Part shown: positions 220 through 60,153 of the stretch, one piece after another | Position numbering within the stretch: the first letter of the stretch is position 1 | Layout of the letters: every line of letters starts with the position of its first letter | Assembly: GCF_000317515.1 (NCBI RefSeq) | Contig: NC_019738.1 | Location: forward strand, 3,746,001-3,810,000 | Origin: Allocoleopsis franciscana PCC 7113 | GTDB taxonomy: Bacteria > Cyanobacteriota > Cyanobacteriia > Cyanobacteriales > Coleofasciculaceae | DNA length: 64,000 nt | Direction: 5' to 3' | Translations under genes and position numbers: made by a program | The notes under the pieces: generated by a model | Told to the model about the DNA's origin: nothing | What the model saw: the letters and a program-made list of their open reading frames with translations, nothing else | The model's database searches: none

Positions 220-885
220 ATGTACAAGTATCGCGCTATTTTGAAGCGGGTGGGTATTGTGCTGATCGCGGTCGGGATTCTCGATATCGCGTATTGGATC
301 TATTGCATATCACAAGGTCAGAGCTATTCGTCCATCTTTAACATTCCAGCGGTGGTGGCGGGTGTGTTTCTTTTTCGGGGTAGTCTACGTGCTGTTCCCC
401 TGGTCACCTGGGTCGCCGCTTTCATGCTCTCTAACTTAGTTAGCGACTTCATACTACTTCCCTTTTTGAAGCCAGCAGAACTCTGGGCAATTGAATTTCG
501 CCTCGATGCGATTGCTCTTTGTAGGTCGCTTCTACTTACAATTATCCTGATCGCGCTTCATTGTTGGATCTACACACAGCTACGAGCTGCACCTGTAGTG
601 TCGGCAAGCGTTAGATCTGGTCATTCTGCCTCCACTCCGAAGCTTGCATTTATCCTTGGGGTAGCGCTGGTAGTATTACCTGTTGGCATGATGCACTTCA
701 TTCGAGGTGGCGCGACTGGAGCTAAAGCAGTGGAGGTAGCCCGTACACAATACGGAGAGGGCTATAAGTATCATCTCACAGGCATGGGCTGGTACTGGCC
801 GAATGAGGTACATGCCAGCCTCACCGCATACAACGAACACGAGATAAAACCTGTTCAAGTCCAGTGGAAGCAGCGATCAAAGTAG
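220..885 (+). CDS. hypothetical multi-pass membrane protein
   Basis: 221 residues. Hydrophobic stretches lie near residues 10-30, 40-55, 58-80, 98-117 and 142-160, so four or five membrane spans are likely. A soluble tail of about 55 residues follows, rich in aromatic and basic residues (GMGWYWPNEVH). I recognise no family motif and offer no function. It starts at ATG only 45 bases after the upstream stop; no strong ribosome binding site is evident. It lies in an accessory stretch of small unrelated genes and may have been acquired. Confidence 0.6.
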   Translation: MYKYRAILKRVGIVLIAVGILDIAYWIYCISQGQSYSSIFNIPAVVAGVFLFRGSLRAVPLVTWVAAFMLSNLVSDFILLPFLKPAELWAIEFRLDAIALCRSLLLTIILIALHCWIYTQLRAAPVVSASVRSGHSASTPKLAFILGVALVVLPVGMMHFIRGGATGAKAVEVARTQYGEGYKYHLTGMGWYWPNEVHASLTAYNEHEIKPVQVQWKQRSK

Positions 886-980
886 CAAAAGAGCGATCGC
901 TGAGGCACAGCCGAAAGCTCATTCACATCTCAAAGTCACTGTCATCATTAAAATTAGTAGAGAGAGCTTAAAGGGAGAGA

Positions 981-1229
981 ATGCTAATGACATTGCAGGA
1001 ATTGCAAAAGCAGGCGTTGCAATTGCTAATTAGCGATCGCTGGCGTTTGGTTCAATCCGTGTTGGCATCAATTGAAAAAGAAACGTTGTCATCTATTTCA
1101 CCCAATTCAACGATACAACCTTTGACTAATCTTTATCCTTGGACTCAAAGACTAATCGGTTCGATTCAGCTAGATACAGACTATTCAACAGAATCCTATG
1201 TTGATTATCTAGAGGAAAAATATAGTTGA
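981..1229 (+). CDS. small antitoxin-like hypothetical protein
   Basis: 82 residues. The N-terminal half (MTLQELQKQALQLLISDRW and the next 20 residues) resembles the short helical proteins that in cyanobacteria often sit before a PIN-domain toxin, hence the antitoxin-like label. No toxin gene follows: the next gene is a GIY-YIG protein, so it is either solitary or mis-assigned. An AGGGAG ribosome binding site lies just upstream of ATG 981, and a second ATG two codons in is equally possible. The C-terminal half is acidic and ends DYLEEKYS. HIP1 core GCGATCGC falls inside the gene. Confidence 0.55.
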   Translation: MLMTLQELQKQALQLLISDRWRLVQSVLASIEKETLSSISPNSTIQPLTNLYPWTQRLIGSIQLDTDYSTESYVDYLEEKYS

Positions 1230-1394
1230 AGCGGTGGATACAGCATAACATCTTTGCTATGGGTGTTAGAGCGCACCTGTAGGATTGAATAAATAGTTAT
1301 GCGGTTTCCGTTATTGGTCGGCGTAGTATGCGGAAATCATTTCTCTGAGTTCAGAGTTGTGTCACTGCAAAGCAATTGATGAAGGAGTATTTTC

Positions 1395-2072
1395 ATGGGC
1401 ATTAGGAGATTCAAATCAGTTATTTACATTGATAGAGATCTCAGTGAGCCAGCTCAAGGGTGGGGATGGGTAGAGGTTGATGTTGAGCATGTGAAACGAT
1501 TCGGAATTGATACAAAGCATCCTCAACACAGAGTAGTAACTAAATGAAAAATAAGGATTGATTCAATTTCTAACTCCGTTTATGAGTACGATGACCCCAA
1601 TCATTTTGTTCGCCCTCCAGCAAGAGGCAAGGCAGGCGGCAAAAAGTTTGTCCTCAATATCAATGGAGAACTCATTACAATAAAAGCTCAAAAATCCCTA
1701 ACAATCCAAGCAATCTCTACATGGGTAAAGACTTGGGCAAGCCCAGAGACTAAGATTATTACCCCTGGCAATCGATTACTTTCCTTGGATGGTGATAAAT
1801 TAGCGCATCAGGCTCATTTCATTTATTTCATACTGAACGAAGATAGCAAAGCTATCAAAATAGGTCGGGCGAAGAATTTGGAAAATAGGATAAAATCGCT
1901 GCAAACGTCTAGCCCAACACAATTAAAATTAATCAAGTCAATACAGGTTGAGAGTGGAGAGAAAGCCCAACAGTTGGAGCAGTCGTTGCACAAGAAGTTT
2001 CAGGAAATTAGGTTGGCTGGCGAATGGTTTAAGATTAGGGAAGATCTCTTAGACTATATTGAGCAGATTTAG
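1395..2072 (+). pseudogene. GIY-YIG / T5orf172-type protein interrupted by an in-frame TGA
   Basis: Translation from ATG 1395, after a clear GAAGGAG binding site, runs 50 codons to TGA 1545-1547. The very next codon continues in the same frame to TAA 2070-2072. Ignoring the TGA gives one 225-residue protein. Its C-terminal third carries a GIY-YIG-like fold of the T5orf172/MUG113 type: FIYFILNE, then IKIGRAKNLENRI, and the conserved Glu region EQSLHKKF followed by GEWFKI. The part before the stop is not separately recognisable. A one-base change from CGA, TGG or GGA would produce the TGA. A short product could still start at TTG 1785. The gene is followed by an attC-like site. Sequencing error or true inactivation cannot be told apart here. 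Confidence 0.7.
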
Positions 2073-2091
2073 TAACTTGGAAGTTGCAGGT

Positions 2092-2178
2092 GCATAACAA
2101 TCGGGTTGGAAGGAACTGACGAAAGATCTTGGTGTATAGGCAAAGGTTACTGACAGCCGCTCAACCGGAACGTTAGAC
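2092..2178 (+). repeat. attC-like recombination site
   Basis: GCATAAC (2092-2098) and GTTAGAC (2172-2178) bound an 87-bp imperfect hairpin. Its arms AATCGGGTTGGAAGG and CCGCTCAACCGGAAC are largely complementary, with mismatches in the positions expected of L boxes. The right box fits GTTRRRY exactly; the left box departs from RYYYAAC at one position. It directly follows the GIY-YIG gene, as an attC follows a cassette gene. No integrase is present in the window. Confidence 0.5.
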
Positions 2179-2294
2179 TCCTCAAGTTATTGGTGAGGAT
2201 GTAGTTGGAAAGTCCAGAGTTCAGTGGTGCTGTACAACAACAGATTGGGAAGATGAGAAAGTGAGAAACTATAGTAGAAAATCAGGCAATATTC

Positions 2295-2519
2295 ATGCCC
2301 AGGAAAATTCGAGAGTTAAAAGCTCAGATTGCGCGTGAAGGTTTTATTTATCTGCCTAAGCGCGGCAAAGGTAGCCACGATCGTTGGCGACATCCTCTGC
2401 TCAGGAAAACACTCACAATTCCAGGCAAGGATGGGGATGATGTGCCACTCTACCTAGAAAAACAGTTGGCACAGTTATTAACTGAACTGGAAGAGCTAAG
2501 GGAGGATAAGAATTTATGA
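2295..2519 (+). CDS. hicA: HicA-type mRNA interferase toxin
   Basis: 74 residues, the usual HicA length. It has the YcfA/HicA double-stranded RNA-binding-like fold signature: an N-terminal helix, GFIYLPKRGKGSHDRWRHP with the catalytic histidine (His28 in GSH), then the beta strand KTLTIPGK and a C-terminal helix. Family members cleave mRNA when freed from HicB. The stop overlaps the start of hicB (ATGA at 2516-2519), so the two are translationally coupled with toxin first, the common HicAB order. All key residues are present, so the toxin looks intact. Confidence 0.88.
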   Translation: MPRKIRELKAQIAREGFIYLPKRGKGSHDRWRHPLLRKTLTIPGKDGDDVPLYLEKQLAQLLTELEELREDKNL

Positions 2520-2734
2520 GTCGATACAGCATGATTGTTCAATGGTCGGATGAAGATCAGCTTTTCCTAGTTACGATACCAGAGTTTAGCGATCGCGTTG
2601 TTATGCCTTGCACTCATGGCAAAACTCGCTCTGAAGCCATTCGTAACGGTGAAGAAGTGATTGAAATGTACTTGGAAGCTTGGCAAGTAGAAGGTGAATC
2701 CATCCCTGAACCCAATACCCTGCAAATTGCCTAA
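2516..2734 (+). CDS. hicB: HicB-type antitoxin
   Basis: 72 residues with the partly degenerate RNase H fold of HicB antitoxins: YSMIVQWSDEDQLFLVTIPEF, then the THGKTRSEAIRNGEEVIEMYLE helix region. No C-terminal helix-turn-helix or ribbon-helix-helix domain is present, so it is the short form, which binds the toxin but may lack its own DNA-binding domain. It overlaps hicA by four bases. The pair sits in the attC-like, degraded region at the left of the window, consistent with a mobile toxin-antitoxin module. Confidence 0.85.
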   Translation: MSRYSMIVQWSDEDQLFLVTIPEFSDRVVMPCTHGKTRSEAIRNGEEVIEMYLEAWQVEGESIPEPNTLQIA

Positions 2735-2740
2735 TTATCA

Positions 2741-3061
2741 TTGCCTCATCTCAGAAAACCTGAACTGATTGAAGAAGTTGTCTACGTGCCTGCTGCACTG
2801 CATCTTACAAGTCATGGTCAACCCCATGGAAAACTAGGGCTTTTATGCTCCAAGCGAAAAGATGGACTTGTCAAGGTTTCAGCATTTGGCGAGAGTCCTA
2901 ATTGCCTTGGCGACTGCTATAACAAACCTACTTCACCAGAACTCGGTCTGACTGACCCAGACTTTATGAATAGACCTGCTGCCTCAATCCTGGAGTGCCC
3001 CCTAAATCCCCCAATTTTGGGGGACTTTGAATTCAGGTTCCCCCCAGAATTGGGGGGGTAG
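2741..3061 (+). pseudogene. degenerate Uma2-like fragment fused to a palindromic repeat
   Basis: The open frame begins at TTG 2741. Its first 30 residues (ELIEEVVYVPAALHLTSHG) resemble the N-terminus of Uma2-family nucleases (ELVDGVVYV..PH). After HGKL the similarity is lost, no PD-(D/E)XK core follows, and the last 25 residues are simply translation of a GC-rich palindromic repeat (2997-3067). I read it as the remains of a Uma2 gene into which a small repeat has landed. The Uma2 assignment rests on a short stretch and is tentative. Confidence 0.4.
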
Positions 3062-3067
3062 GGGGGC
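2997..3067. repeat. REP/MITE-like palindromic element
   Basis: A 71-bp element begins GCCCCCTA and ends TAGGGGGGC. Each half holds a run of C, AATT, then a run of G (CCCCCAATTTTGGGGG and CCCCCCAGAATTGGGGGG), so the whole folds as an imperfect inverted repeat with smaller hairpins inside. Repeats of this composition are frequent between cyanobacterial genes. It forms the 3' end of the degenerate Uma2-like frame. Confidence 0.65.
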
Positions 3068-3453
3068 GAAAATCGACTGCAAGCAAGAGGTCTAATGATG
3101 AATTTTCAAGTTCTGGGAGTCGCTGGACTGGTCGGCAAACGCTTTGAACTCGATCGCATCGTGACTACAGAAGAGGCGCACACCCTAGGTGGTAGTTCAT
3201 TGCTGTAAAGGCTTGTTGGTGGTGCTTCAACCCTACCACGTCCCCATCCCCAACCTCTTCAGGCAACAAAGCCATCCAGCTGAGCCACTTGTATCAAAAC
3301 AGGATGGCAGTAATAACGCCTTTGGAACAGTATCTGAGCGATTAGTGACAGAACTGATATGATCTTGGGATCGGCTAGTTACTCCTCAAAGAATTGCTCA
3401 GTTCCGTGACTTTGACTAGCTCCTTCTCACAATCTGCCAATTAGGTCTTAAGT
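3062..3453. other. gene-poor remnant stretch with one copy of a 78-bp repeat
   Basis: Nothing here looks like an intact gene. Bases 3104-3181 are identical to 11587-11664. Here they fall in a 37-codon frame from ATG 3095 that reads NFQVLGVAGLVGKRFELD and then ends in unrelated residues. The remainder shows no stem-loop or promoter I can defend. It looks like decayed coding sequence left of the large kinase. Confidence 0.5.
3104..3181 (+). repeat. 78-bp direct repeat, copy 1
   Basis: Base-for-base identical to 11587-11664, in the same orientation and the same relative reading frame. Flanks differ at once on both sides (TTTT against AATTT on the left, ACC against GTC on the right). Confidence 0.9.
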
Positions 3454-6400
3454 ATGTTAACTCATCGGACTGTTCTTGTAATTGCTGACTCTGCTGAGAG
3501 CGATCGCGTTTATGAGCATCAATTACAACAGGATAGTAATGTTGCATACAAGATTCTTACCGAGCAATATGATACCCCAATTCTGGCACTGTCTCAATCG
3601 CAACAGATTGATGGCATTCTCTTAGAACTTCACTTTCCCCACTCCAATAGCATCCAGCTTCTTCGTCAACTCAAAGAACAGATGGGCGATCGCTGCCCAC
3701 CGATCGTTGTAATTGACAGTGACGATGCAGAGGTAGCGGTGCGGGCGTTCAAAAACGGGGCAGCAGATTATTTGGTGAAAGACCGGATGACCCCTGATGA
3801 TTTGCGCCTATCGATGCACAGTGCGATCGAAAATGCTGAATTACGACGGGAACTCGAACGTAGTCAGGAGCAGTTTCAAACCTCGGTTGAGAATATGCTG
3901 GACTGCTTTGGCATCTTTTCAGCTATGCGGGATGAGTCGGGTCAAATTGTAGACTTTCGGATTGATTATCTCAACGGAGCGGCATGTGAAAACAACCGGA
4001 TGCCGAAAGCAATGCAGATCGGTCGAGGGTTATGCGAGGTGTTGCCCGCTCATCGGGAGTCAGGGCTGTTTGATGAGTATTGCCGATTGGTTGAAACGGC
4101 TGAACCGTTGATCGAAGACTCGCTCATTTACGATGACACGTATGGCAAGCAGCATCTGGTTCGGGCGTTTGATATTCGAGCCACTAAATTGAATGATGGC
4201 TTTGTCGCTTCTTGGCGAGATGTCACCGATCGCAAGCGCCTGGAATTGGAATTGAGCCACACAGTTACAGACCTACAACGACACGAGGCAGCGATTCAAC
4301 AACTGAACCGGGATTTGACAAATCGGGTTGCTGAACTGCAAAGCCTGTTAGACATCATTCCTGTGGGTATTGCGATCGCCACCGATCCAAGTTGTACCCA
4401 GATGCAGAACAATGCGTACCTTCGACAACTGCTAGGTGTTGACCCCGGCAGCAACATCTCAAAGAGTGCGCCTGTTGATGAGCAGCCCCCCTATCGGGTT
4501 TTCCAGGATGGACGGGAAGTACCCGCCGAGGATTTACCGATGCAAGTAGCTGTCAGATTGGGTATAGACGTGCGAGACGCTGAGTTTGACATTCTGTTAC
4601 CCAATGGCACGGTACACCAATTACTCTCCTATGCAACTCCCCTACGAGACGACCAAAATCAAATTCGGGGTGTAATCGGAGCCTTTTTAGATATCACTGA
4701 GCGAAACCAGGACGCAGCAGCTCTCAAAGCTAGTCAACAGCGCTATCGAGAGTTAGCCGAAGCCATGCCCCAAATGGTTTGGACTGCGGACGCAACTGGA
4801 GCAGTCAATTATTGCAATCAACGCTGGTACGAGTACACAGGGTTGAATGAAGCGGAATCGATGGGTTTAGCGGCAGCTAATACGGTTCACCCTGATGAAC
4901 GCGATCGCTCGTTAACTCAATGGAGTGAAGCGATCGCGAATGGACAGTCATTTGAAGTTGAATACCGCCTTTGCCATTGGGGGGGTGAGTACCAATGGTT
5001 TATCTGTCGAGCAATCCCGACACGAGACAGTCAAAACCAACTCACAGGTTGGATTGGCACGATTACGAACATTGATGACATCAAGCGCAGTGAGGCATTG
5101 GTGCAGCAGAGCGAGCAGCAGCTTCAGCGGCAACTTGCGGAAATTGAAGCTATCTATCAGTCTGCTCCGATTGGCTTGAATGTCCTAGATACTGAACTCC
5201 GTTTTGTGCGGATTAATCAGCGCTTGGCAGACATCAACGGGCTACCGATTGAAGCTCATCTTGGGCGTACTGTACGAGAACTATTTCCCAATCTGGCAGA
5301 TACGCTTGAACAACTTCTGCACCCAATTCTGAAAACGGGAGAACCGCTGCTGAATGTTGAAATTCAGGGTGAAATTCCGGCACAACCTGGCATAAAGCGC
5401 ACCTGGCTAGAACACTTTTTGCCGTTGAAGGCTGGGGAGCGGGTAGTTGGCATCAGCACCGTTTGTGAAGAAATTACGGAGCGGATTGAGGTAGAAGCCG
5501 CCCTGCGTCAGAGTGAAGAACGCTTCCGCCACATGGCAGATAACGCTCCTGTCATGATTTGGGTGACAGACGCTACAGGCTACTGCACCTACCTCAACCA
5601 GGGCTGGTATGACTTTACAGGTCAAACCGAGGCAACGGGTTTGGGGTTTGGCTGGCTCGATGCCGTGCATCCCGAAGATAGCGAATCCTCCAAAAACGTG
5701 TTTTTAAGCGCAACCCATCGTCAAGAAGCGTTCCGCTTAGAATATCGTTTGCGTCGTAAGGATGGTAAATATCGCTCTTGCCTCGATGCGGCAAGTCCGT
5801 GGTTAGGGGAAGATGGGGAGTTTAAGGGATACATTGGTTCAGTGATTGATATTAGCGATGTCTACGACGAGCTTCGCTTACGCAAACAAGCCGAGGAAGC
5901 CCTGCGTGTCTCTGAAGAACGATATCGCACTCTGTTTGAGAACATGAATGAAGGCTTTTGCGTCGCTGAAGTGCTGTTTGACGAACACAATAAGCCTATT
6001 GATTATCGTCTATTGGAGATTAACTCAGTTTTTGAGAAACATTCGGGACTTAAAAACGCACAGGGCAAAACCGCACGGGAACTGCACCCGGAACTGGAAC
6101 AGTACTGGATTGACCTTTATGGCAATGTTGTCCTGACAGGCGAACCTGTCCGCTATGAAAACTATTCTGAGGCATTAAATCGGTGGTTTGATGTTTCCTC
6201 CTTCCGAATTGGGCCGCCAGGAAGCCGAAAAGTTGCCATTCTGTTTGAGGACATTAGCAAACGGAAGCAGACTGAGCGAGAACTGCAAGAGAGCGAAATG
6301 CGGTTCCGGACTCTGGCAGATAACATTTCTCAGTTTGCCTGGATGGCAGATGAGAACGGGCAGATTTTCTGGTATAGCAAGCGCTGGTTTGACTACACAG

Positions 6401-50375: not shown

Positions 50376-53300
50376 CTACTTTCGCAAGTAGTAATTCAGA
50401 CAACCCACTCCGGCACCTGTGCCGATGAGGGCAATGAGTGCAGGAGCTAATGGTAGCCATCCACCGGGGAAGGCGAGGACGAAATAGCAGATGCCGTAAA
50501 GAGTGACAACCGAAACCACACCTGCGATCGCTAAAAATCTCGGTTGCCGAAACCACCAAACCACAAAACCACCGACCACCGACCAGCCAAAAATCCAAAG
50601 CGTTTCCGACCCCATGGGCATCCACCAAATCAAGGGACGCCCATTCAGTGTGGCACTCAAGAGTTGGCTAATCATCTGCGCGTGCAATACCACTCCCGGA
50701 ACTTCACCATAAGGTGTATTCCAGTAGTCGGCTTGGCGTTCGGCTTTATCCACCAGGCCAATCAACACAATGCGATCGCGGATCAAGTCTGCGGGAACGC
50801 GATTTTCCAACACATCCTTGAGAGGAACGATTGGCACGAACTTTTCTGGATCACCCTGATGAATTCGATAGTTGAGCATCGCTTGATACCCACCCAACTG
50901 ATCACCTCGATCTCGGTAGCCGCTGCCATTTCCTGACGTTGGTGCCCACAAGGGCGGAATCACCGTCTTGCCAAACTGCATGTGGCGCACAAAGTCTTCT
51001 TCCTTCGGATCAAAGGGAGAGGAATAAGGAATACCCTTCCCTTCCAGGTATTTTTGCGCCAGTACCAGGCTGAAGGCATTCATCGTGTTGCAATAATCTG
51101 GATCTGCCCCTGCCATCAGGTAATGGCGACGTAAAAACTTACCCCCATCATCTTGCAGATTAGCAAAGCCGACCCGCTCTATCGGTACATTTGTCGGGGC
51201 TTTGTTTCCCTTCTTCATTTGCCCCCGATCATTCGTGCCACTGCCTTTGCAAACGGCTACCAAGTTGGTGGTGTCTTTAAAGGTTTGAGTGAGTTCTGGT
51301 AATGAACTCAAGTCCCGGATAAAATCTAAGCCAATCAAGCGGGGTTGATGACGGTTAAGGGCTTTGAGGGTATCCGATAGCGCCAAGTCCGGCACAGTCC
51401 CTCGCCCCAAGCGATAGCGATCACTGCGATCGATCATCTCAGCACTGTCTACATCAACCCCGACAATCACCAGCCGATCATCTTTCGGTTCATTCGGACG
51501 CAACCGGAGCAAATGGTCGTAGGCTGCCAGTTCCACCGGTTGCATCAGCCCAAAAAAGCGTCCAGCAAACACTAATGCCGTGACAGCCAAGCCAGTCAAC
51601 ATCACCGTGCGCCGCTTCACCCGACGATAGGGGAGTTCTCGACTCGCTGCCAAATACTCTAACTGAAGGTCGGTGGGAGCCGGTTCTCGATTGGTCGTTT
51701 GTGTCAACCACTGCTGGGAGGCAACCAAATCTTTCCCCCGCACCAAGAAGCCATCATCACGTCCATGCTGTTCCCACTCCTTGGCTTTGAGCAACAAACG
51801 GGTGTGAGTTCTGACATAATCTGGGTCTGTATCCAGGGTTCTCGTGAGTTCCCCAAAGTTGGTAAGGAAGTCTCCTCCATGCTTGCGGAAATCCACCCAC
51901 TGCACTTTTGCTAAACCTGGGTGCAGCGTCGCCGGATCGACCTCCTGATATAAAACGGTGACAATGCGCTTATTCAAGCTCATCGCATACTCCACCTGTG
52001 CCGCAGAGTCGGGCGAATTGACGGAGTTGGGGGAAATAATAAATAAAAAGTTGTTGGCGTATTCAATTCCCCGCTGAATCTCTTGCTGAAAGTCAACCCC
52101 AGAGGCGATACTTTCTTGCTCAAACCAGGTTGTCTTGCCTTGAATTTGTAGAGTCTCGTTCAGCTTGCGGGCAAAATCAGAATCGGTGCGGGAGTAGGCA
52201 ATAAATACATCGAGGGAAGCATCTGGAGGTTGTTTGAGGCTTTCCGCGATGAATTCTTCTTGTAGGGGTGTGGATGAATTCTGAGTTCTCTGTTTTGCCA
52301 CCTTCAACCACGCCTCAGCTTGGCGAAGATTGTAACCCCGCAATAAAATGCTGGGATTGCGCTTTTGCCGTTCCCACTTCAGCGCCTTCGCCAATACGAT
52401 TTTATGCTGCTCATGGTAAGCGGCGTCTTCACGCAGTACCTTAATTAACTTGGCAATAGCATCGTGATATTGCGCCTCTTGCTCCGGATCTGTGATCGTG
52501 ATGAACTGTATAGCACCTAGTTCAGGCGGAACTTGCTCAAGCTCAACCTCTTTAATCAGTACAGGAATAATTCGCTTTTTGTGCGTCCTGGCGTGAGCCA
52601 GTTCCATTTGACAGTATTGCGATGCCAGAGAGGCTGGAGACATGAGATAAACCACATTATCGGCTTCCTCCAGACCCCGATAAATGGCCTCTACAAAATC
52701 TGTCCCAGAGTTAATGTCTGTTAGGTTCGTCCAAACGGTGAAACACTCGCGCCTCAAACTGTTCGCCACTTTTTCCATGAACGCCCTCTCCTTTTCCGAG
52801 TAGGAGAGAAAGACATGAGTCATTAGGTTATTGGCGTTCTTGGTACTTTCACCAATAAAGGCACAGTGCAAGTCGGTTGGTTCGCAAGGGGGTTGCTCAT
52901 CCTTAAACCGGATTTTTAGCCAGTTTTCGGCTTGTATCCGTTCTTCTCCGGTTAAGAGGTAACTTGACTGTTTCTGATTGCGTTCCCACTCCAGCGCTTT
53001 AGCTAAAAAGTAGGTGTGCTGTTTTACATAGTCTCGATGACGAGTAAATATTTCTAGCAGTCCAGCAAAGGATTTCTCAAAATCGTCAATTCCTTCGCGG
53101 AAGTAAACCCAGTTGATTTTGCCAATCACAGGGTGCATATTGGGGAAACTGGAGTGTAAACCCTTGGATTTGTAAGTTTCCCACTCACTCAGATCACGGC
53201 CTGGGTTGCGTTGCTGCCAAATTTCTTCTGTAATTTGCTCGACGTGCAACAGGGGAATAATTCGTTTATTGCGTCGGAGGGCTAGCTCAATTTCTTTGCC

Positions 53301-53555
53301 GCAGTAGGGCGAGTTGACAGAGTGGGGGGCGATGAGAAATAGAAAGTTATCGGCTTTCTCGATGCCGTCATCAATTTGGTTTTGGTAATCTACCCCTAAA
53401 GGAATATCGTTTTGATCAAACCAAACCTTTCGTCCTTCTTTCAGGAGCCGGTCATAGAGCTTAGTTGCAAAAGCTTTGCTATCTGCTCGTCCGTATGAAA
53501 TAAATGCATCTTGAAAGCTATTGATCTTTCCTAAAACTTCTAAGCTGCTATTCAC
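50376..53555 (-). CDS. TIR-TIR-TIR-CHASE2 membrane protein
   Basis: 1059 residues from GTG 53555 (the frame extends seven codons to a TTG). Three TIR domains near residues 14-165, 245-375 and 448-575. TIR1 and TIR2 keep the putative NADase Glu (Glu88 in SPYCGKE, Glu318 in SQYCQME), whereas TIR3 has Gln520 (SPDSAAQ). Each TIR is followed by a short helical module of the form AKALEWER..LLRG..QAEXWL. Then a membrane helix (TVMLTGLAVTALVFAGRFFG), CHASE2 (670-940; AAYDHLLRLRP, IVGVDVDSAE, GLDFIRDL) and two to three C-terminal helices. CHASE2 lies outside the membrane, so this may join an external signal to TIR output inside. It is the minus-strand neighbour of DUF928. Confidence 0.88.
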   Translation of the reverse strand: MNSSLEVLGKINSFQDAFISYGRADSKAFATKLYDRLLKEGRKVWFDQNDIPLGVDYQNQIDDGIEKADNFLFLIAPHSVNSPYCGKEIELALRRNKRIIPLLHVEQITEEIWQQRNPGRDLSEWETYKSKGLHSSFPNMHPVIGKINWVYFREGIDDFEKSFAGLLEIFTRHRDYVKQHTYFLAKALEWERNQKQSSYLLTGEERIQAENWLKIRFKDEQPPCEPTDLHCAFIGESTKNANNLMTHVFLSYSEKERAFMEKVANSLRRECFTVWTNLTDINSGTDFVEAIYRGLEEADNVVYLMSPASLASQYCQMELAHARTHKKRIIPVLIKEVELEQVPPELGAIQFITITDPEQEAQYHDAIAKLIKVLREDAAYHEQHKIVLAKALKWERQKRNPSILLRGYNLRQAEAWLKVAKQRTQNSSTPLQEEFIAESLKQPPDASLDVFIAYSRTDSDFARKLNETLQIQGKTTWFEQESIASGVDFQQEIQRGIEYANNFLFIISPNSVNSPDSAAQVEYAMSLNKRIVTVLYQEVDPATLHPGLAKVQWVDFRKHGGDFLTNFGELTRTLDTDPDYVRTHTRLLLKAKEWEQHGRDDGFLVRGKDLVASQQWLTQTTNREPAPTDLQLEYLAASRELPYRRVKRRTVMLTGLAVTALVFAGRFFGLMQPVELAAYDHLLRLRPNEPKDDRLVIVGVDVDSAEMIDRSDRYRLGRGTVPDLALSDTLKALNRHQPRLIGLDFIRDLSSLPELTQTFKDTTNLVAVCKGSGTNDRGQMKKGNKAPTNVPIERVGFANLQDDGGKFLRRHYLMAGADPDYCNTMNAFSLVLAQKYLEGKGIPYSSPFDPKEEDFVRHMQFGKTVIPPLWAPTSGNGSGYRDRGDQLGGYQAMLNYRIHQGDPEKFVPIVPLKDVLENRVPADLIRDRIVLIGLVDKAERQADYWNTPYGEVPGVVLHAQMISQLLSATLNGRPLIWWMPMGSETLWIFGWSVVGGFVVWWFRQPRFLAIAGVVSVVTLYGICYFVLAFPGGWLPLAPALIALIGTGAGVGCLNYYLRK

Positions 53556-53744
53556 ACAAAACCTCAAGTATGTCAAGTTTTTTTAAACGAACGTCAGGAG
53601 CAGATGAGCGCTACTCGATTGCTTCCTTATTTCTACTTTATCTATTCCTTTAGGTAGTTGTCCAAATTTATTATCTTTACTAGCACTAAAAAATATTGGT
53701 AAGTTGGATTTTCGTCACATTACCCAGATTGTCTATCTCTAGAG

Positions 53745-55487
53745 CTATAAAAGAGCGTTATTCGATATAATCATGGCGATCGCTAAACGCACCGCTTGCC
53801 CCACCACCGAAAAACGTGCTGCCTCCGAAGCCGCTTCTTGCCACCTTAACAATTGTTTCTGGAAGATTTCATCGGTTTCAGCTCGCTTCATAATTACTTT
53901 ACCAATGACTTCTTTTTGAATTTCTTCCGTCGAAATGTTCTGTTGTTGCAAAAACTCGATCAGCCGCTCTACACTATCCACACACTGTTCTGGTGCTTGG
54001 GACATGATAATCCGTTGAATCTGAGTGACCACCTCTTGATATAACTGCCGTTTGCGACGGTTAGGTGATAAGGACAGGGGAGGTGGTGCTGGCAATGGGG
54101 GCAGCCGTTCGATCTGTAAATTCTGAGCCTCCTTGATTTCAAGTAAGTCCAGGAGAATTTGGCGTCGAGTCACAAAACGCTCCAACATATCTGGATAGAG
54201 TTGCACAATCCGCTGACTAATCAGCTTGGTATTGACCGATCGATTAGCGGACAAGCGCAGTAAGTATTTCCCAGAATTGGCTTCATAGGATTTGAGGGTG
54301 AGTTGAAGATTCGGAGACTCGAATTGGACTTGAGTGAGAGTAAACACGAGCGCCTCCCAGTTCGGAGCCTCAAGAAACGACACGGTTACCGTTAAGCGGT
54401 TTTCGGTGTTTTTGCGCTCCAATCCTGCGGGTGGCAAATCGCCCGTTACTGGATAGCGATCGCTTGGGCTTTTGCTAGAGTAGTCGAATCCCGTAAACAC
54501 ATATCGACACTCAACATAAGATAAATCGACCTCCTCCAAATGCCACTGATGAATGCAGCAACCCGTCAGTTCTGCCCGGTCGAGTTTAGTCCGAATTAAA
54601 TAACTTTCCAACAGATAGGCACCACTCAAATTGGCCTCACTTAACAGAGTATCCTTCAGATAAGCCCCACTTAAGTCAGCTTTTCGCAAATCAGCTCCCC
54701 GTAAATTCGCCTCACTCAGGTCGGTGCGTAATAAATAAACCTCTTGCAGAACTGCACGCAACAAATCTGCTTTTCGTAAACTGGCTCTGAGCAAATAAGC
54801 CCCCGTGAGATTCGCTCGACTCAAGTCTGCACCCTCACAATTGGCTTCACTCATATCCGCACCCGTGAGAATCGCCCGATGCAAGTCTGCCTGTCTGAGA
54901 TTTGCACCTCGCAGGTAAACGTTATTGAGATTCGCCTCTGTCAAATTAACGCCAACTAAAGTCGCTTCTTGTAAATTCGCCTGTTCTAAATTAGCTTCCC
55001 GTAGATTCGCACCGGTGAAATTGGTAGCGATGAGGTTGGTGCGGCAGAGATTGGCTTCCATCAACTGTGCGCCCATGAGCAGAGCATGGTTGAGATTAGC
55101 GTGTTCGAGATTAATCTGATCAAGCTGAGTGTTCTGCAAATCTGCCCCACTCAAATTAGAAGCGCTTAAATCCGCCCAATTTAAATCAGCCTCTCGTAGA
55201 TTTGCCAATCGCAGATCCACTTTACTCAGCTTGGCTCGACTCAATATTGATTGAGTAAAATTGGCATTGTCCAAGATAGCGCTATGTAGATTGGCCTGAT
55301 GCAAGTTGGCTCCAGTGAAATTGGCGTGGCTGAAACAACACCAACTCAGATTTGCACCACTGAGGTTAGCACCCGTCAAATTAATTTTGCGGAGGTTCGC
55401 CCCGGTCAGGTTTGCCCCACTCAGGTCAATATGGGCAAAGTCACGTTCTCCTTGTCGGTATCGGTCGAGAAAGTTTTGTACTTGCAT
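53745..55487 (-). CDS. pentapeptide-repeat protein
   Basis: 580 residues. Residues 18-325 are about 55 A(D/N)LXX pentapeptides (GANLTGANLRKINLTGANLS, EADLNWADLSASNLSG), expected to form a right-handed quadrilateral beta-helix. The final 240 residues are a separate globular domain (SFLEAPNWEALVFTLTQVQF, LIEFLQQQNISTEEIQKEVI) that I cannot assign. Cytoplasmic, since no signal peptide. Pentapeptide proteins can mimic DNA and bind gyrase, but most cyanobacterial ones have no known role. It lies 190 bases from TIR-CHASE2 on the same strand. Confidence 0.88.
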   Translation of the reverse strand: MQVQNFLDRYRQGERDFAHIDLSGANLTGANLRKINLTGANLSGANLSWCCFSHANFTGANLHQANLHSAILDNANFTQSILSRAKLSKVDLRLANLREADLNWADLSASNLSGADLQNTQLDQINLEHANLNHALLMGAQLMEANLCRTNLIATNFTGANLREANLEQANLQEATLVGVNLTEANLNNVYLRGANLRQADLHRAILTGADMSEANCEGADLSRANLTGAYLLRASLRKADLLRAVLQEVYLLRTDLSEANLRGADLRKADLSGAYLKDTLLSEANLSGAYLLESYLIRTKLDRAELTGCCIHQWHLEEVDLSYVECRYVFTGFDYSSKSPSDRYPVTGDLPPAGLERKNTENRLTVTVSFLEAPNWEALVFTLTQVQFESPNLQLTLKSYEANSGKYLLRLSANRSVNTKLISQRIVQLYPDMLERFVTRRQILLDLLEIKEAQNLQIERLPPLPAPPPLSLSPNRRKRQLYQEVVTQIQRIIMSQAPEQCVDSVERLIEFLQQQNISTEEIQKEVIGKVIMKRAETDEIFQKQLLRWQEAASEAARFSVVGQAVRLAIAMIISNNALL

Positions 55488-55607: not shown

Positions 55608-55634
55608 CTCAGGCTTACTTCGTTGAAGCCTGAG
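55608..55634. repeat. right-end hairpin of the TnpB element
   Basis: CTCAGGCTT and AAGCCTGAG pair perfectly around nine bases; the stop codon of the TnpB tail lies within it. On the minus strand this is just beyond the tnpB coding end, where IS605-type elements carry their right-end hairpin. Confidence 0.55.
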
Positions 55635-55766
55635 TTTTCAGTAGCCCTGTATCCCAGGTGGTCAACTCAACAGGTTGTCCCGTCCATAAAACACAACTAA
55701 GATACGAACCTCCAGGCTGGTTTATAGACAGCCCCAAAGCAGAAATATTTTTCGCGCCATTTAAAA
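55615..55766 (-). pseudogene. 3' part of tnpB (beyond the intron)
   Basis: Reading from 55766 gives LNGAKNISALGLSINQPGG, and the last residues include WDTGLLKTQ, ending at stop 55615-55617. LNGAKNI is the final RuvC block of TnpB, where DADLNGA(K/R)N places the third catalytic Asp; here the Asp codon itself lies at or beyond the junction. The fragment is in the same orientation as the 5' part at 58768-59883. So the two belong to one gene interrupted by an intron. Confidence 0.7.
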
Positions 55767-55806
55767 TTAAAGTCGGCGACTCCCTCACGAGAGCCGCCGC
55801 TCTCCA

Positions 55807-55840
55807 AAACCGTGCTTGATACTTTCGCATCACACGGCTC
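55807..55840 (-). ncRNA. group II intron domain V
   Basis: The 34-base minus-strand hairpin starts GAGCCGTG, has the CGAAAG loop and bulge, and closes with CACGGTTT. This is the catalytic core fold of group II introns, about 20 bases after the RT stop. A GC-rich hairpin like domain VI follows on the minus strand (55770-55800). Confidence 0.85.
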
Positions 55841-55859
55841 CTCAGCAATACGGTGTTTG

Positions 55860-57677
55860 TCATACAAACCTCATTGCCAGCATATCGTTTTCCCAGAACC
55901 ATTCTGAGTTAACTGGCGGCTTAGGCTCGACACTATTGCAGTCGGATTTTGTGCCATAACTGCCGTCAAGGGCAGTTTTTATATCGTGGCAATGTCGATG
56001 AAGGAGTTGCCAATTTTTGTATTCATCCTTTCCACCAAGAGATTTCGGGATGATGTGGTCACGCTCTATTACATCTCCATCTTTGAGGTACAGTCCGCAG
56101 TGGGCGCATTTTCCTTTTTGCTGTTTCAGCAGCGATGCTGTTCGCTTTGGCATCTCAGGATTTTTTCCCATTCGGATACTCCAGTAAATTAGGTTTCCAT
56201 CGTATGGTGACGCTTCGCCTTTAACTTTCACATAGTCCCTAATATTGGTGTCTCTGTGTTTTAGTAACCGAAGGTGTTTTTCACCTTGCCTGGTTGCGAA
56301 GACCCAATTATCGCCGCCAATGGTTTTCCAGTATTTGTCTGCAAGCCATTGTTCACCTTTGTTTCTGTGTCGGCTTTTTGCCCATGCTTTTAATGCAATG
56401 TAGATATTAGCATCGAGCTTTTTAAATGCTTTGCTGCTATTGACCGTAGAGTAATAGTTTGTCCATCCTCTAATGATAGGATTCAATTTGTCTATCAGGC
56501 TCTTTTGTGAGCTTCCTTTGTGGTCGTTTATTACTCTCTTGATTTGGTCGTAATGTACCTTACATTTTTCTTTGCTTGGGGTGATGATAGTTTTGAAGCC
56601 TAGAGGTTTCCCTTTTGTGTCTTTTCCTGTCGTGTATTTTCCGACAGGGAATTGTCGGACATAGTATCCCAAAAAGTTAAATCCTGGTTTTTCTTGTCCA
56701 TGCTCATTTAAGGTATGAGCTATACGGGTTTTGCTCGGTTTCAATTCTAAGCCCATGCCTTTTAACCATTCAGAGATTACCTCTCTGCATCCTTGGACAA
56801 CGGTTATGTCATTGTGGAGAATCACAAAGTCATCGGCGTAGCGTATTATTGAGACTGAATCTCGCTTATCCCTTTTTGGAAGTTGATATTTTCCATCTGA
56901 CCTTTTTAGGTCACAGGTTTCCACGTACTCTTTAATTCGCCATTCCATCCCGTGAAGGGCAATATTTGCCAGTAACGGAGAGATTACCCCGCCCTGTGGC
57001 GTACCCTCGGATGTGTCGAAGTACTGCATATTATCCATCACCCCCGCTTTTAACCACGCTCGGATTTGTCGGCGAATGGTGGGGGACGTATTTAGTTTAT
57101 TGAGCAGTGCTTCATGGTCAATGCGGTCGAAGCATTGTGCAATGTCTGCATCCAGCACGTATTTTGCTTTTTGCTTGATTACAGTCTGTATCGCTGATAT
57201 CGCATCTTGGCACGACCTTCCTGGTCTGAACCCATAGCTATTGGGTTCAAATTGCGCTTCCCATTCTGGTTCTAGTGCCAGTTTGACTAGCGCCTGCAAG
57301 GCGCGGTCTTTCATGGTAGGTATTCCCAATGGTCGCTTCTCTTCCTTTCCCGGTTTTGGAATCCATACTCTCCGGGTGGGGCTGACCTTGGTTCCCAATT
57401 TCAATTGACCTATAAGGTTTTGACGTTGCTTTGGGGTCAGGCTCCTCTGCCCATCCACACCTGCCGTCTTTTTGCCTTGGTTATCTTGGGTAACTCTACG
57501 CACCGCGAGACATCTTGCTGACCAAGATTTCATCAACAACTTTTGGAGTCGGCGAACTGTCCTGACATCTCCACGACTAGAGGCTTGGTAAATCCGTTTT
57601 TGTAGCTTGAATGCCATCCGCTCATGCTTTCGCCAAGGGATTTTGTTCCATTCATACATCGGTTGTTCCGTGTTCAT
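55860..57677 (-). CDS. ltrA: group II intron reverse transcriptase-maturase with HNH nuclease
   Basis: 605 residues, full-length. RT palm and fingers: KRPLGIPTMKDRALQALVKLALEP, NSYGFRPGRSCQDAI, YVLDADIAQCFDRIDH, GTPQGGVISPLLANI and the catalytic YADD at 280-283. Then the maturase X (GIIM) domain (LNPIIRGWTNYYSTVNSSKAF) and a C-terminal HNH endonuclease with zinc cysteines (CAHCGLYLKDGDVIERDHIIPKSLGG, HRHCHD). It aids splicing and retrohoming of its intron. The 63-base gap to the RT fragment upstream is too short to hold its own domains I-III, so its intron is 5' truncated. Confidence 0.95.
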   Translation of the reverse strand: MNTEQPMYEWNKIPWRKHERMAFKLQKRIYQASSRGDVRTVRRLQKLLMKSWSARCLAVRRVTQDNQGKKTAGVDGQRSLTPKQRQNLIGQLKLGTKVSPTRRVWIPKPGKEEKRPLGIPTMKDRALQALVKLALEPEWEAQFEPNSYGFRPGRSCQDAISAIQTVIKQKAKYVLDADIAQCFDRIDHEALLNKLNTSPTIRRQIRAWLKAGVMDNMQYFDTSEGTPQGGVISPLLANIALHGMEWRIKEYVETCDLKRSDGKYQLPKRDKRDSVSIIRYADDFVILHNDITVVQGCREVISEWLKGMGLELKPSKTRIAHTLNEHGQEKPGFNFLGYYVRQFPVGKYTTGKDTKGKPLGFKTIITPSKEKCKVHYDQIKRVINDHKGSSQKSLIDKLNPIIRGWTNYYSTVNSSKAFKKLDANIYIALKAWAKSRHRNKGEQWLADKYWKTIGGDNWVFATRQGEKHLRLLKHRDTNIRDYVKVKGEASPYDGNLIYWSIRMGKNPEMPKRTASLLKQQKGKCAHCGLYLKDGDVIERDHIIPKSLGGKDEYKNWQLLHRHCHDIKTALDGSYGTKSDCNSVEPKPPVNSEWFWENDMLAMRFV

Positions 57678-57740
57678 GACTTGTTTTACTACTACTGTTG
57701 GCTTTACCTTCCTTATTACCGTGGGTCTGTTAGCATATCC

Positions 57741-58340
57741 TCACTCATGGCTGATATTGTCAAAAGCCCCTTTAATATCGGCATCTAGCACCCATGTGTC
57801 CATTCCTTTCTGGAGTCTAATCCAGGATTGTTCAAGAGCGTCATGGCAGCTTCTACCGGGGCGAAATCCGTAGGAATTAGCCTCAAATTCGGCTTCCCAA
57901 ATGGGTTCCAACGCATTTTTGACAACTGCCTGTGCGACTCGGTTTTTGACCGTTGGGATGCCTAATGGACGTTGTTTGCCGTTTGCTTTGGGGATGTATA
58001 CCCTTCTGGCAGGTTTGGCTTGCCACAGGCTATATGTCAGCATTTCTCTGACAAGTTTGACTCTTTCTGCTGGGGTCGTTGCCGTCTGACCGTCTATGCC
58101 CGCCGTTCGTTTCCCTTGATTTTCTTGAGTCACCCTTCGCACTGACAGTAGCAGGTTGGAGTAACTGCGTAGCATCAGTTTCATAAGGCTGCGAACCTTA
58201 TTCCACTGACCGTTCTGTTTGGCACGATAAATTCTCCGTCTCAGGTTCCTAACGCGCTCTTTGATGGTCTTCCAATCAATGTCTGACCACTCTGTTGGCG
58301 GTTCCTTGGCTCCGATTTCATTGCTGAATCTATCTTTCAC
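57741..58340 (-). pseudogene. truncated group II intron reverse transcriptase
   Basis: 199 residues matching only the N-terminal half of an RT: RRVTQENQGKRTAGIDGQ, RRVYIPKANGKQRPLGIPTV, NSYGFRPGRSCHDALEQSW and VLDADIKGAFDNISHE, where the frame stops. The YADD, maturase and HNH parts are missing. It is similar to but distinct from the complete RT that follows on the same strand, so it belongs to a different intron lineage cut by the arrival of the second. Confidence 0.9.
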
Positions 58341-58767
58341 TTCGGTTCGGTTCCTTCTCTAAGGTTTTATCGTTTGAAACCTAGTGGAAGTCTGCCGTCT
58401 TTCGACGTAGGGCAAATCTTGAACCCCTATCTTCTGCATTACACAGAAGCATTTGCTTTCTCCACCTTCCTTTACCCTCTAAATAATTCCGTCTTCCTTA
58501 CAGTTGACCTACTCAAGTTTTCGACCTTCACCTGAGAATCTATAGGGCTTACTGTGTTCCGTACATCTGAACTTCGATTGGGTTAGGATTCCATCTCTAT
58601 CCCGGCAGGAGTTTAGTTCTCTCGTTAAGACTAAACCATACTGTCATAACCAACCTGCTTACCTTTTGGTCAGAGTGTGTCAACCTGGTTTCACTCTTCA
58701 GCGAATTACGGGACTATCAATAATGGTTCACTTTCGTTAATCCTTCTCAATCTTCCCCTTGCCCTCC
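58341..58767 (-). ncRNA. probable group II ribozyme 5' domains
   Basis: No gene. On the minus strand the stretch lies directly upstream of the truncated RT, as domains I-III do, and contains short self-complementary pieces and purine-rich runs (AACGAGAGAACTAAAC, GGAAGACGG). A 5' GTGYG-type splice site is not convincingly found, so borders are uncertain. Confidence 0.45.
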
Positions 58768-59883
58768 TTACAATTCAGGTTTTGTATCTTGGACTTTTGT
58801 GCCTTGCATTCCGTCAGGTTCATTGCTTACTTTTGACGTAGAATGACCACATCTAAACCGCTTACCACTTCTGTTCGATTCACCCCGAATTGGGTGGATA
58901 TGCAGGCACTTGTGGCAAGTTTGGCTGGTATAACGAGGGTCAACAAATACCAAATTTACACCAAACTTTATCGCTTTATAAGTCAGAAACTGGCGAAGTT
59001 GGTAGAACGCCCAGCTATTGCTCCTACGTCTCTCTGTTTTAGAGCGAGGTTGTTGGTTGGTGCGCTCACGAATTCCCGTCAAATCCTCCAAGGCAATAGT
59101 TTGCTTGGTATTTTTGGCGTGTTGGATAAGTCGATAGCTGACGGTATGATTCACCTGTGCCTGAAAGCGTCGTTCGCGTCCACTCAACCGTTGCAAGACC
59201 TGTCTCGCCCTACGACGAGTAGACCTTGTGCCTTTGGACGCTTTTTGCTGCAACGAAGCTCTGACACGGGCGTATTTGTCTCGAATCAGGGTTATTTGTT
59301 TTCCACTGAATTTCTCCCCCTCAGAGGTAACGCAAATGTCTGTTCTGCCCAAATCCACGCCCAAAACTTTATCTGTTTGTTCAGGTTGTGGTGGTTCCGA
59401 TTCAAGCTGAATTTGCAGGTAGTAAGTACCATCTTTTCTTTTTACCAGCACTGCCGATTTAGGGTTTCTCCCTGTCAACAAGTGACGCTGATAGTTGCCA
59501 ATATACAAGGGGAATTTCTCTCTCCCTTTCATCGTGGTCAAACTAACAGTCCAATCTTTCTCCTTAAAGGTGAAAGTCCGAGCATCATAGGTTGCACTGG
59601 TTGGAGCAAACCCCTTAACAGGTCGGTTTTGCTGTTTAGCGGTTTTACGGTTGGCACAAACCCTGCGAATAGCATGGATGGTCATCTGAGCCGACAAGCC
59701 CGAATAATCCCGTGCTTCCTTGTAAATCAAGGATTGTACGGCTATCTGGTTAGTCAGTTTTGGGTCAGTGTTTTTGTTCACGTACTCACAGCAGTTTGCA
59801 AAGGCACGAAGTACCGCGTCAAGTTTCTCAACCTGACCTTGAGTAACTTCGAGTTTACAGCTAACCGTGAGGACTTGAGACAT
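58768..59883 (-). pseudogene. tnpB: 5' part of tnpB (RNA-guided nuclease, IS605 family)
   Basis: 371 residues from ATG 59883, chosen because LTVSCKLEVTQGQ is the usual TnpB start; the frame extends 12 codons further. The RuvC-like core has the first catalytic Asp (VLGVDLGRTD, residue 177) and the Glu (IALEDLTGIRE), then the zinc finger begins SQTCHKCLHIHPIRG and FRCGH. After FRCGH the sequence departs from the family: the second Cys, the last catalytic Asp and the tail are absent and replaced by a short foreign peptide ending TKPEL. The true tail lies across the intron. Without splicing the protein cannot be an active nuclease. Confidence 0.85.
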
Positions 59884-59925
59884 TTTCAAAGGGTGAAGAA
59901 TATGCGACGAATATACCATGTGATT

Positions 59926-59960
59926 GCTAATTTAGGGGGCATCGAACCCCCTAAATTAGC
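59926..59960. repeat. perfect 15-bp-arm hairpin, probable left end of the TnpB element
   Basis: GCTAATTTAGGGGG and CCCCCTAAATTAGC pair exactly around a seven-base loop, 43 bases before the tnpB start. IS605-type left ends carry such a hairpin. It could alternatively be an intergenic repeat, since GGGGG/CCCCC palindromes recur in these genomes. Confidence 0.55.
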
Positions 59961-60153
59961 CGCTATCCCTCCCTACCTTGTAGCCGTTCATTCTCGCCTA
60001 GCGGCTACGAAAATCTGGCGACTGTTGGTGGGGACTCTCGCGAACACGTTGAATAAAAGGTTTGATCGAAGTTTCGTCCGGTTGCAACTTGAGAACCGAT
60101 ATATACGATTTAAAGGCTGATTAGCTTAAAACTCAAGATTGAATGAGTGAAAA

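What the first reader, a model, noticed from the sequence alone, without database searches (positions are those of the whole stretch)
55608..59960. tnpB interrupted by a composite group II intron
The TnpB C-terminal tail (LNGAKNI) lies 3 kb from its N-terminal part, and the gap is a group II intron with two RT starts. It is one mobile element inside another inside a third, and the intron joins a 5' part of one lineage to the RT and domain V of another. Splicing could in principle restore TnpB.
Basis: partly seen in the sequence, partly recalled or inferred. Interest (0 to 1): 0.75.

Follow-up and report, generated by a model that had tools for sequence, protein, structure and literature searches.

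The report
Broken chimeric intron in tnpB
A cyanobacterial transposon gene (tnpB) is cut by a damaged hybrid of two self-splicing retro-introns; the hybrid can no longer splice, but its relatives repeatedly invade very different tnpB genes at exactly the codon of a catalytic aspartate.

Summary
An IS605-type tnpB (minus strand, 59919->58843) is separated from its tail (55765->55615) by a group II intron chimera. Part A (58841->~57745) is the 5' part of one intron lineage, with an N-terminal RT fragment. Part B (~57741->55766) is an intact 605-aa RT/maturase/HNH plus domains V-VI of another lineage.

The inference that splicing could restore TnpB fails. Compared with intact relatives, the chimera lacks the first ~112 nt of intron A (including GTGYG), ~570 nt of intron B, and 22 nt of tnpB exon. 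Joining the exons would hit a stop.

The 3' junction is exact and informative. Introns of B's RT clade sit at the same place, splitting the GA|Y codon of the third RuvC aspartate, in tnpB genes only 18-54% alike, although their RTs are 76-90% identical. Six of seven clade members are at this codon. A 5'-junction pattern finds it in 13 of 389 related genomes (reversed control: none). EBS1 loops match their own targets far better than swapped ones.

I read the locus as a dead relic of a tnpB-homing group II intron, probably a collapsed twintron. Introns in IS200-family elements and twintrons are known; I found no report of this codon as a shared target.

The parts
58843..59919 (-). tnpB 5' exon (IS200/IS605 OrfB; RuvC I-II and zinc finger up to ...GKRFRCGH), cut off 22 nt before the intron target codon
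   Evidence: Pfam OrfB_IS605 / Cas12f1-like_TNB; alignment to uninterrupted L101, L057, L064
58842..58842 (-). Junction J1: tnpB ...GGTCATT joined to A-intron nt ~113 (CTACGTC...); no GTGYG here
   Evidence: Full-length A relatives carry GTGCGA... about 112 nt further upstream
57742..58841 (-). Part A: 5'-truncated lineage-A group II intron, domains I-III plus start of domain IV
   Evidence: 88% to L133/G165, 68-76% to other full A introns, matches ending at 57743-57745
57741..58340 (-). RT1: N-terminal 199 aa of the lineage-A reverse transcriptase, broken at ...GAFDNISHE*
   Evidence: RVT_N 114.7 bits, RVT_1 positions 1-85 of 205
57739..57749 (-). Junction J2 (A/B seam) with short microhomology (GAGTGAGG)
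   Evidence: A relatives read ..CATGA(G/A)TA.., B relative L154 reads ..AACAGTGAGGATATGC
55860..57677 (-). RT2: intact 605-aa lineage-B intron-encoded protein (RT with YADD, maturase, HNH)
   Evidence: Pfam RVT_N, RVT_1, GIIM, HNH; 80% to L084
55766..55842 (-). Domains V and VI and the intron 3' end (...GACTTTAAT)
   Evidence: RF00029 56.3 bits, full model 1-77
55615..55765 (-). tnpB 3' exon: [GA]T TTA AAT GGC GCG... = (D)LNGAKNISALGLSINQPGG...; starts inside the split RuvC-III Asp codon
   Evidence: Same phase and position as L084, L085, L217, L219, L226, L229
55599..55686 (-). Right end of the IS element (overlaps end of tnpB)
   Evidence: 98% to a solo copy at G000:C1:635024-635109, 89% in G007
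60027..60057 (-). Left-end motif of the IS element
   Evidence: 97% to G000:C1:4457553-4457583

Best explanation
This is the inactivated remnant of a tnpB-homing group II intron. Shown: the 3' half (lineage B) belongs to a strongly supported RT clade whose members insert at one site, splitting the GA|Y codon of the third RuvC catalytic Asp, in widely divergent tnpB genes. Shown by covariation: target choice is by EBS1-IBS1 base pairing. Shown: in this copy the 5' half has been replaced by a 5'-truncated piece of another lineage (A), with loss of the 5' splice site and 22 nt of exon, so neither splicing out of tnpB nor restoring TnpB is possible. Inferred (about 0.45 on its own): an A intron had inserted into domain I of the B intron (a twintron, as in the closest A relative, G165), and two deletions then collapsed it. 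Inferred: RT2 could still act only in trans. The confidence given is for the whole apart from that route.
For: RT clade of 7 (100/100) including RT2; 6 of 7 at the tnpB Asp codon. Host TnpBs 18-54% identical, RTs 76-90%. Ligated exons read DRDINAAKNI, DRDENAARNI, DRDFNAAINI, DRDLAAAL, GDADYNGAKN; two relatives (L219, L260) have an intact host TnpB frame and intact RT across the intron. Pattern survey: 16 sites in 13 of 389 genomes, reversed-pattern control 0; 13 clear and 1 probable tnpB 5' exons. EBS1 found by unbiased scan at offset 0 (A lineage); own pairing 4.09/6 versus 2.42 for swapped partners, maximum of 2000 swaps 2.93. Off-site member L154 has EBS1 CCGCCA matching its own site TGGCGG. 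Loss of the 5' end by alignment with A relatives. L133 is an A intron inside a B-type domain I at GACTAGCCAT|CAATCC, with two domain Vs; window A EBS1 ATGGTT pairs 6/6 with AGCCAT. A and B parts are otherwise single copy in this genome.
Against: The route to the chimera is not proven: J1 and J2 are also explained by one reverse-transcription event with a template switch, or by two neighbouring introns. The A EBS1 also pairs (three G.U) with tnpB GGTCAT exactly at J1, although 14 such sites exist in 1.29 kb. The 22-nt exon loss is inferred from a relative 81-88% similar. Two clade members (L217, L219) have only 4-5 of 6 EBS1 pairs. No expression data.
Confidence: 0.82

Rival explanations
1. One aberrant retrohoming event: the B RNP primed reverse transcription at the tnpB Asp codon, copied B from its 3' end up to 57741, switched template to an A intron RNA, stopped ~112 nt short of A's 5' end, and the cDNA was joined to the upper strand 22 nt upstream.
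For: Explains exact 3' junction, chimera, 5' truncation and small exon loss at once; short microhomology at J2. Template switching by group II RTs is established knowledge (mine, not tested here).
Against: No second such chimera among relatives; no donor A or B copy in this genome now; nested A-in-B precedents exist.
Confidence: 0.3
2. Two introns sat side by side in tnpB (A at GGTCAT|T, B at GA|T) and a deletion from A's RT to B's domain IV fused them, with a separate loss at A's 5' end.
For: A EBS1 ATGGTT can pair with GGTCAT at J1; a tnpB with two introns exists in G016 (L085).
Against: The pairing has three G.U and 14 equivalent sites occur in the gene; A's truncation would have to start exactly at its own insertion point.
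Confidence: 0.17
3. One reading: a functional composite intron that splices out and restores TnpB.
For: Domain V/VI and RT2 intact; in some relatives splicing would restore TnpB.
Against: No 5' splice site, 22 nt exon missing, joined exons hit a stop.
Confidence: 0.03
4. Assembly artefact joining two introns.
For: Introns are common assembly break points; several relatives end at contig ends.
Against: The contig is 7.47 Mb and neither part has another copy in this genome to mis-join.
Confidence: 0.04

Closest known systems
Thermosynechococcus elongatus group II introns, family F4 in ISEL1 (Mohr et al. 2010, PMC2882425)
   Same: Cyanobacterial group II introns at a conserved site in an IS200-family element; EBS/IBS targeting; use of other mobile elements as harmless sites
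   Different: There: three introns in one IS species of one genome, position in the gene not stated in the text I read. Here: one RT clade in divergent tnpB families of several cyanobacterial families, nearly always at the RuvC-III Asp codon; this copy is a dead chimera
Group II twintrons (T. elongatus F3 in F1, PMC2882425; Trichodesmium, PMC4649490)
   Same: Intron inside intron; A relatives sit in B-type introns (L133, L134, L137)
   Different: The window copy has no complete inner or outer intron left
IStrons (group I intron plus IS605-type transposase, PMC4227781)
   Same: Self-splicing intron combined with an IS200/IS605-type element
   Different: Group I and one mobile unit there; here an independent group II retroelement parasitises tnpB
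T. elongatus TeI4f/TeI4g recombinants (PMC2882425)
   Same: Evidence that two group II introns recombined
   Different: There by homologous exon shuffling between ancestral introns; here the two RTs are 48% identical and ends are lost

Membership tests
Mobile bacterial group II intron (HNH-bearing IEP) | Domain V/VI catalytic core | tested here: met
   RF00029 56.3 bits over the full 77 positions
Mobile bacterial group II intron (HNH-bearing IEP) | IEP with RT (YADD), maturase and endonuclease domains | tested here: met
   RT2: RVT_N, RVT_1, GIIM, HNH; YADD in translation
Mobile bacterial group II intron (HNH-bearing IEP) | GUGYG 5' end at an intact 5' exon junction | tested here: not met
   Window starts at A nt ~113; A relatives aligned
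Mobile bacterial group II intron (HNH-bearing IEP) | EBS1 complementary to the flanking IBS1 | tested here: inconclusive
   B's EBS1 is lost here; A's EBS1 ATGGTT pairs best with B domain I, weakly with tnpB. Met in relatives
tnpB RuvC-III-homing intron clade (defined here) | RT in the 7-member clade and 3' exon starting inside the GA|Y Asp codon | tested here: met
Twintron | Complete inner intron inside a complete outer intron | tested here: not met
   Only the 5' part of A and the 3' part of B remain; one domain V
IS200/IS605 tnpB (OrfB) | OrfB_IS605 and zinc-finger/RuvC C-terminal domains | tested here: met
   Pfam 34.6 and 54.5 bits, above cut-offs
IS200/IS605 tnpB (OrfB) | Intact gene with third RuvC Asp | tested here: not met
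   Asp codon split and its first two bases plus 20 nt before it lost
IStron | Group I intron at the element end | tested here: not met
   No group I family hit in Rfam

The most novel reading that the evidence does not exclude
Cyanobacteria carry a specialised family of group II retroelements whose RNA targets the conserved RuvC-III codon of tnpB, so that an RNA-guided retroelement lives in, and by splicing switches, the catalytic codon of an RNA-guided nuclease across many transposon families.
Probability: 0.45. Interest if true: 0.75.

Novelty: new variant of a known kind. Interest (0 to 1): 0.52.

Why it matters
TnpB is held to be the ancestor of Cas12 and is present in many copies in cyanobacteria. 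A retroelement clade that homes to its catalytic Asp codon gains a large supply of conserved, non-essential targets, as homing introns and inteins do in other conserved active-site codons. Splicing would decide whether TnpB has its third catalytic residue, so the intron could regulate an RNA-guided nuclease. The many natural EBS1/IBS1 pairs are also ready-made data on target recognition. The window copy itself is a dead fossil of that process.

Tried and rejected
Rfam domain I-IV models: no hit in window or intact relatives, so the RNA core was placed by alignment instead. Plasmid collection: only partial RT matches. Deciding between A landing in tnpB or in B's domain I by EBS1 alone: rejected as proof, 14 compatible sites in tnpB. 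EBS2: no clear covarying position. Empty site in the sister genome: the IS is absent beside truB in G001 but the other flank differs, so no clean empty site. L242 matched the 5' pattern but its exon is not TnpB, and L249 is uncertain; both were left out. Phylum-wide pattern search: no genomes beyond the order, so the pattern is confined to this order in the sample. Literature: no paper found on group II introns in the tnpB RuvC codon; most subscription-journal papers are not held.

Full report
WHAT IS THERE. On the minus strand an IS605-type tnpB runs from 59919 to 58843 and breaks off at ...GKRFRCGH. Its tail, (D)LNGAKNISALGLSINQPGG..., starts at 55765. Relatives found in 243 genomes of the order (best 87-88% protein identity) include uninterrupted ones. 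L101 reads ...FKCGHCGWVGDADENGAKNISALGLSINQPGGSYLSC... and aligns to both window pieces, 81% and 88% at DNA level.

THE INSERT IS A CHIMERA. Rfam finds group II domains V-VI at 55842-55766 (56.3 bits). RT2 (57677-55860) is an intact 605-aa IEP with RVT_N, RVT_1, maturase and HNH domains. RT1 (58340-57741) is only the first 199 aa of another RT, 48% identical to RT2. DNA relatives of the two halves stop at the same seam: B-type introns begin to match at 57741-57740 (81% for L084) and A-type introns stop at 57745-57743 (88% for L133). The seam shows short microhomology, GAGTGAGG. Outside this locus neither half has a near-identical copy in the 8-Mb genome; the only other intron matches at about 70%. 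A mis-join of repeats is therefore unlikely.

IT CANNOT SPLICE. Full-length A introns begin GTGCGA(C/T)GTG... about 112 nt upstream of the point where the window's part A begins; the A relatives align there. The window has tnpB ...GGTCATT joined straight to that internal point. By comparison with L101, 22 nt of tnpB (GTGGTTGGGTTGGTGATGCTGA in L101) are also missing. They encode the last zinc-finger cysteine up to two bases of the RuvC-III Asp codon. Joining what is left gives CAT TTT TAA.

THE 3' JUNCTION IS A RECURRENT TARGET. The intron ends ...GACTTTAAT and the exon resumes inside the Asp codon, GA|T TTA AAT GGC. The same split occurs in other tnpBs with both ends present: L084 (Symploca sp. 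SIO2E6, the same contig as L153) GACCGCGA|..|TATCAACGCC = DRDINA; L217 GACAGAGA|..|TGAAAATGCT = DRDENA; L226 = DRDFNA; L219 = DRDLAA; L229 GATGCGGA|..|TTATAATGGT = GDADYNG; L085 = DRDENA with domains I-III deleted. Further 3' junctions at the same codon: L099, L100, L205, L228, L235. In a maximum-likelihood RT tree, RT2 falls in a seven-member clade (100/100), and six of the seven sit at this codon. L229 sits at the same codon but belongs to another RT clade. Host TnpBs are 18-54% identical, while the clade's RTs are 76-90% identical. The intron has thus moved between divergent tnpBs rather than being inherited with one.

SURVEY. The 5'-junction pattern GAYVSNGAGTGYGANTCGTT gives 16 hits in 13 of 389 genomes of the order; the reversed pattern gives none. 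Thirteen of the 16 5' exons clearly end in a TnpB zinc finger plus DR or DA, one more probably does, and two do not or are unclear. A phylum-wide sample adds no genomes. L219 and L260 keep an intact TnpB frame on both sides and an intact RT, so in such relatives splicing would restore TnpB. That step is inferred, not shown.

HOW THE TARGET IS READ. An unbiased scan of all alignment positions against all exon offsets picked one loop pairing with the six nucleotides just before the intron (EBS1-IBS1) in both lineages: B 0.77 of pairs versus a background of 0.36 (sd 0.055); A 0.82 versus 0.37 (sd 0.07). With 60 B-type introns, own partners pair at 4.09 of 6 and swapped partners at 2.42 (maximum of 2000 swaps 2.93). 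L154, the one clade member not in tnpB, has EBS1 CCGCCA, complementary to its own site TGGCGG, as expected of a retargeted member.

HOW THE CHIMERA AROSE (inferred). The closest A relative, L133 in G165, is a twintron: an A intron (1718-4181) inside domain I of a B-type intron at GACTAGCCAT|CAATCC, with two domain Vs. Two other A introns lie inside B-type RT genes (L134, L137). The window A EBS1, ATGGTT, pairs fully with AGCCAT of that domain I site. The simplest nested history is A inside B inside tnpB, then two deletions. A single retrohoming event with template switching, or two neighbouring introns fused by deletion, remain open; I give the three histories about 0.45, 0.3 and 0.17.

WHAT IS KNOWN. 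Mohr et al. 2010 (PMC2882425) describe T. elongatus introns at a conserved site in the IS200-family element ISEL1, twintrons, and recombination between introns. Twintrons are also known in Trichodesmium (PMC4649490). IStrons (PMC4227781) combine group I introns with IS605-type elements. I found no report of the tnpB RuvC-III codon as a shared target. I rate this a new variant of a known kind; the window copy itself is a dead relic, and the family around it is the interesting part.

Noticed in passing
G000:C1:897154-899700 (locus L096, minus strand): Second, apparently intact group II intron in this genome (RT ~603 aa, 63% to RT2, RF00029 53.7 bits); its EBS1 CTGGTT matches its 5' exon AACCAG at 6 of 6.
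   Followed up: partly
G000:C1:635024-635109 (L097 5024-5110): Solo 86-bp copy of the IS right end (98%) with no tnpB beside it, between unrelated genes; another right-end-like piece at C1:558526.
   Followed up: partly
L085 (G016:C271) 528-4841: One tnpB carrying two group II introns, ending at 3111 and 4841; the second keeps only its first 12 nt (GTGCGATTCGTT) before the RT start, so domains I-III are deleted.
   Followed up: partly
L138, L140, L145, L087, L204, L207: Other group II introns sit in tnpB at different sites (N-terminal region, zinc finger, a few codons after the Asp), so tnpB looks like a general intron hotspot in these cyanobacteria.
   Followed up: partly
L134 and L137: A-lineage introns inserted inside B-type intron RT genes at conserved RT motifs (RVTQDNQG, DADIAKCFDR).
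   Followed up: partly
window 50376-55487: Protein with repeated TIR-like domains and a CHASE2-like C-terminal part (by eye) next to a pentapeptide-repeat protein, downstream of the IS element.
   Followed up: no
L259 (G016:C246) and L265 (G292:C298): Intron 5' ends at the tnpB Asp codon without a following RT: one has an N gap, the other looks 3'-truncated.
   Followed up: partly
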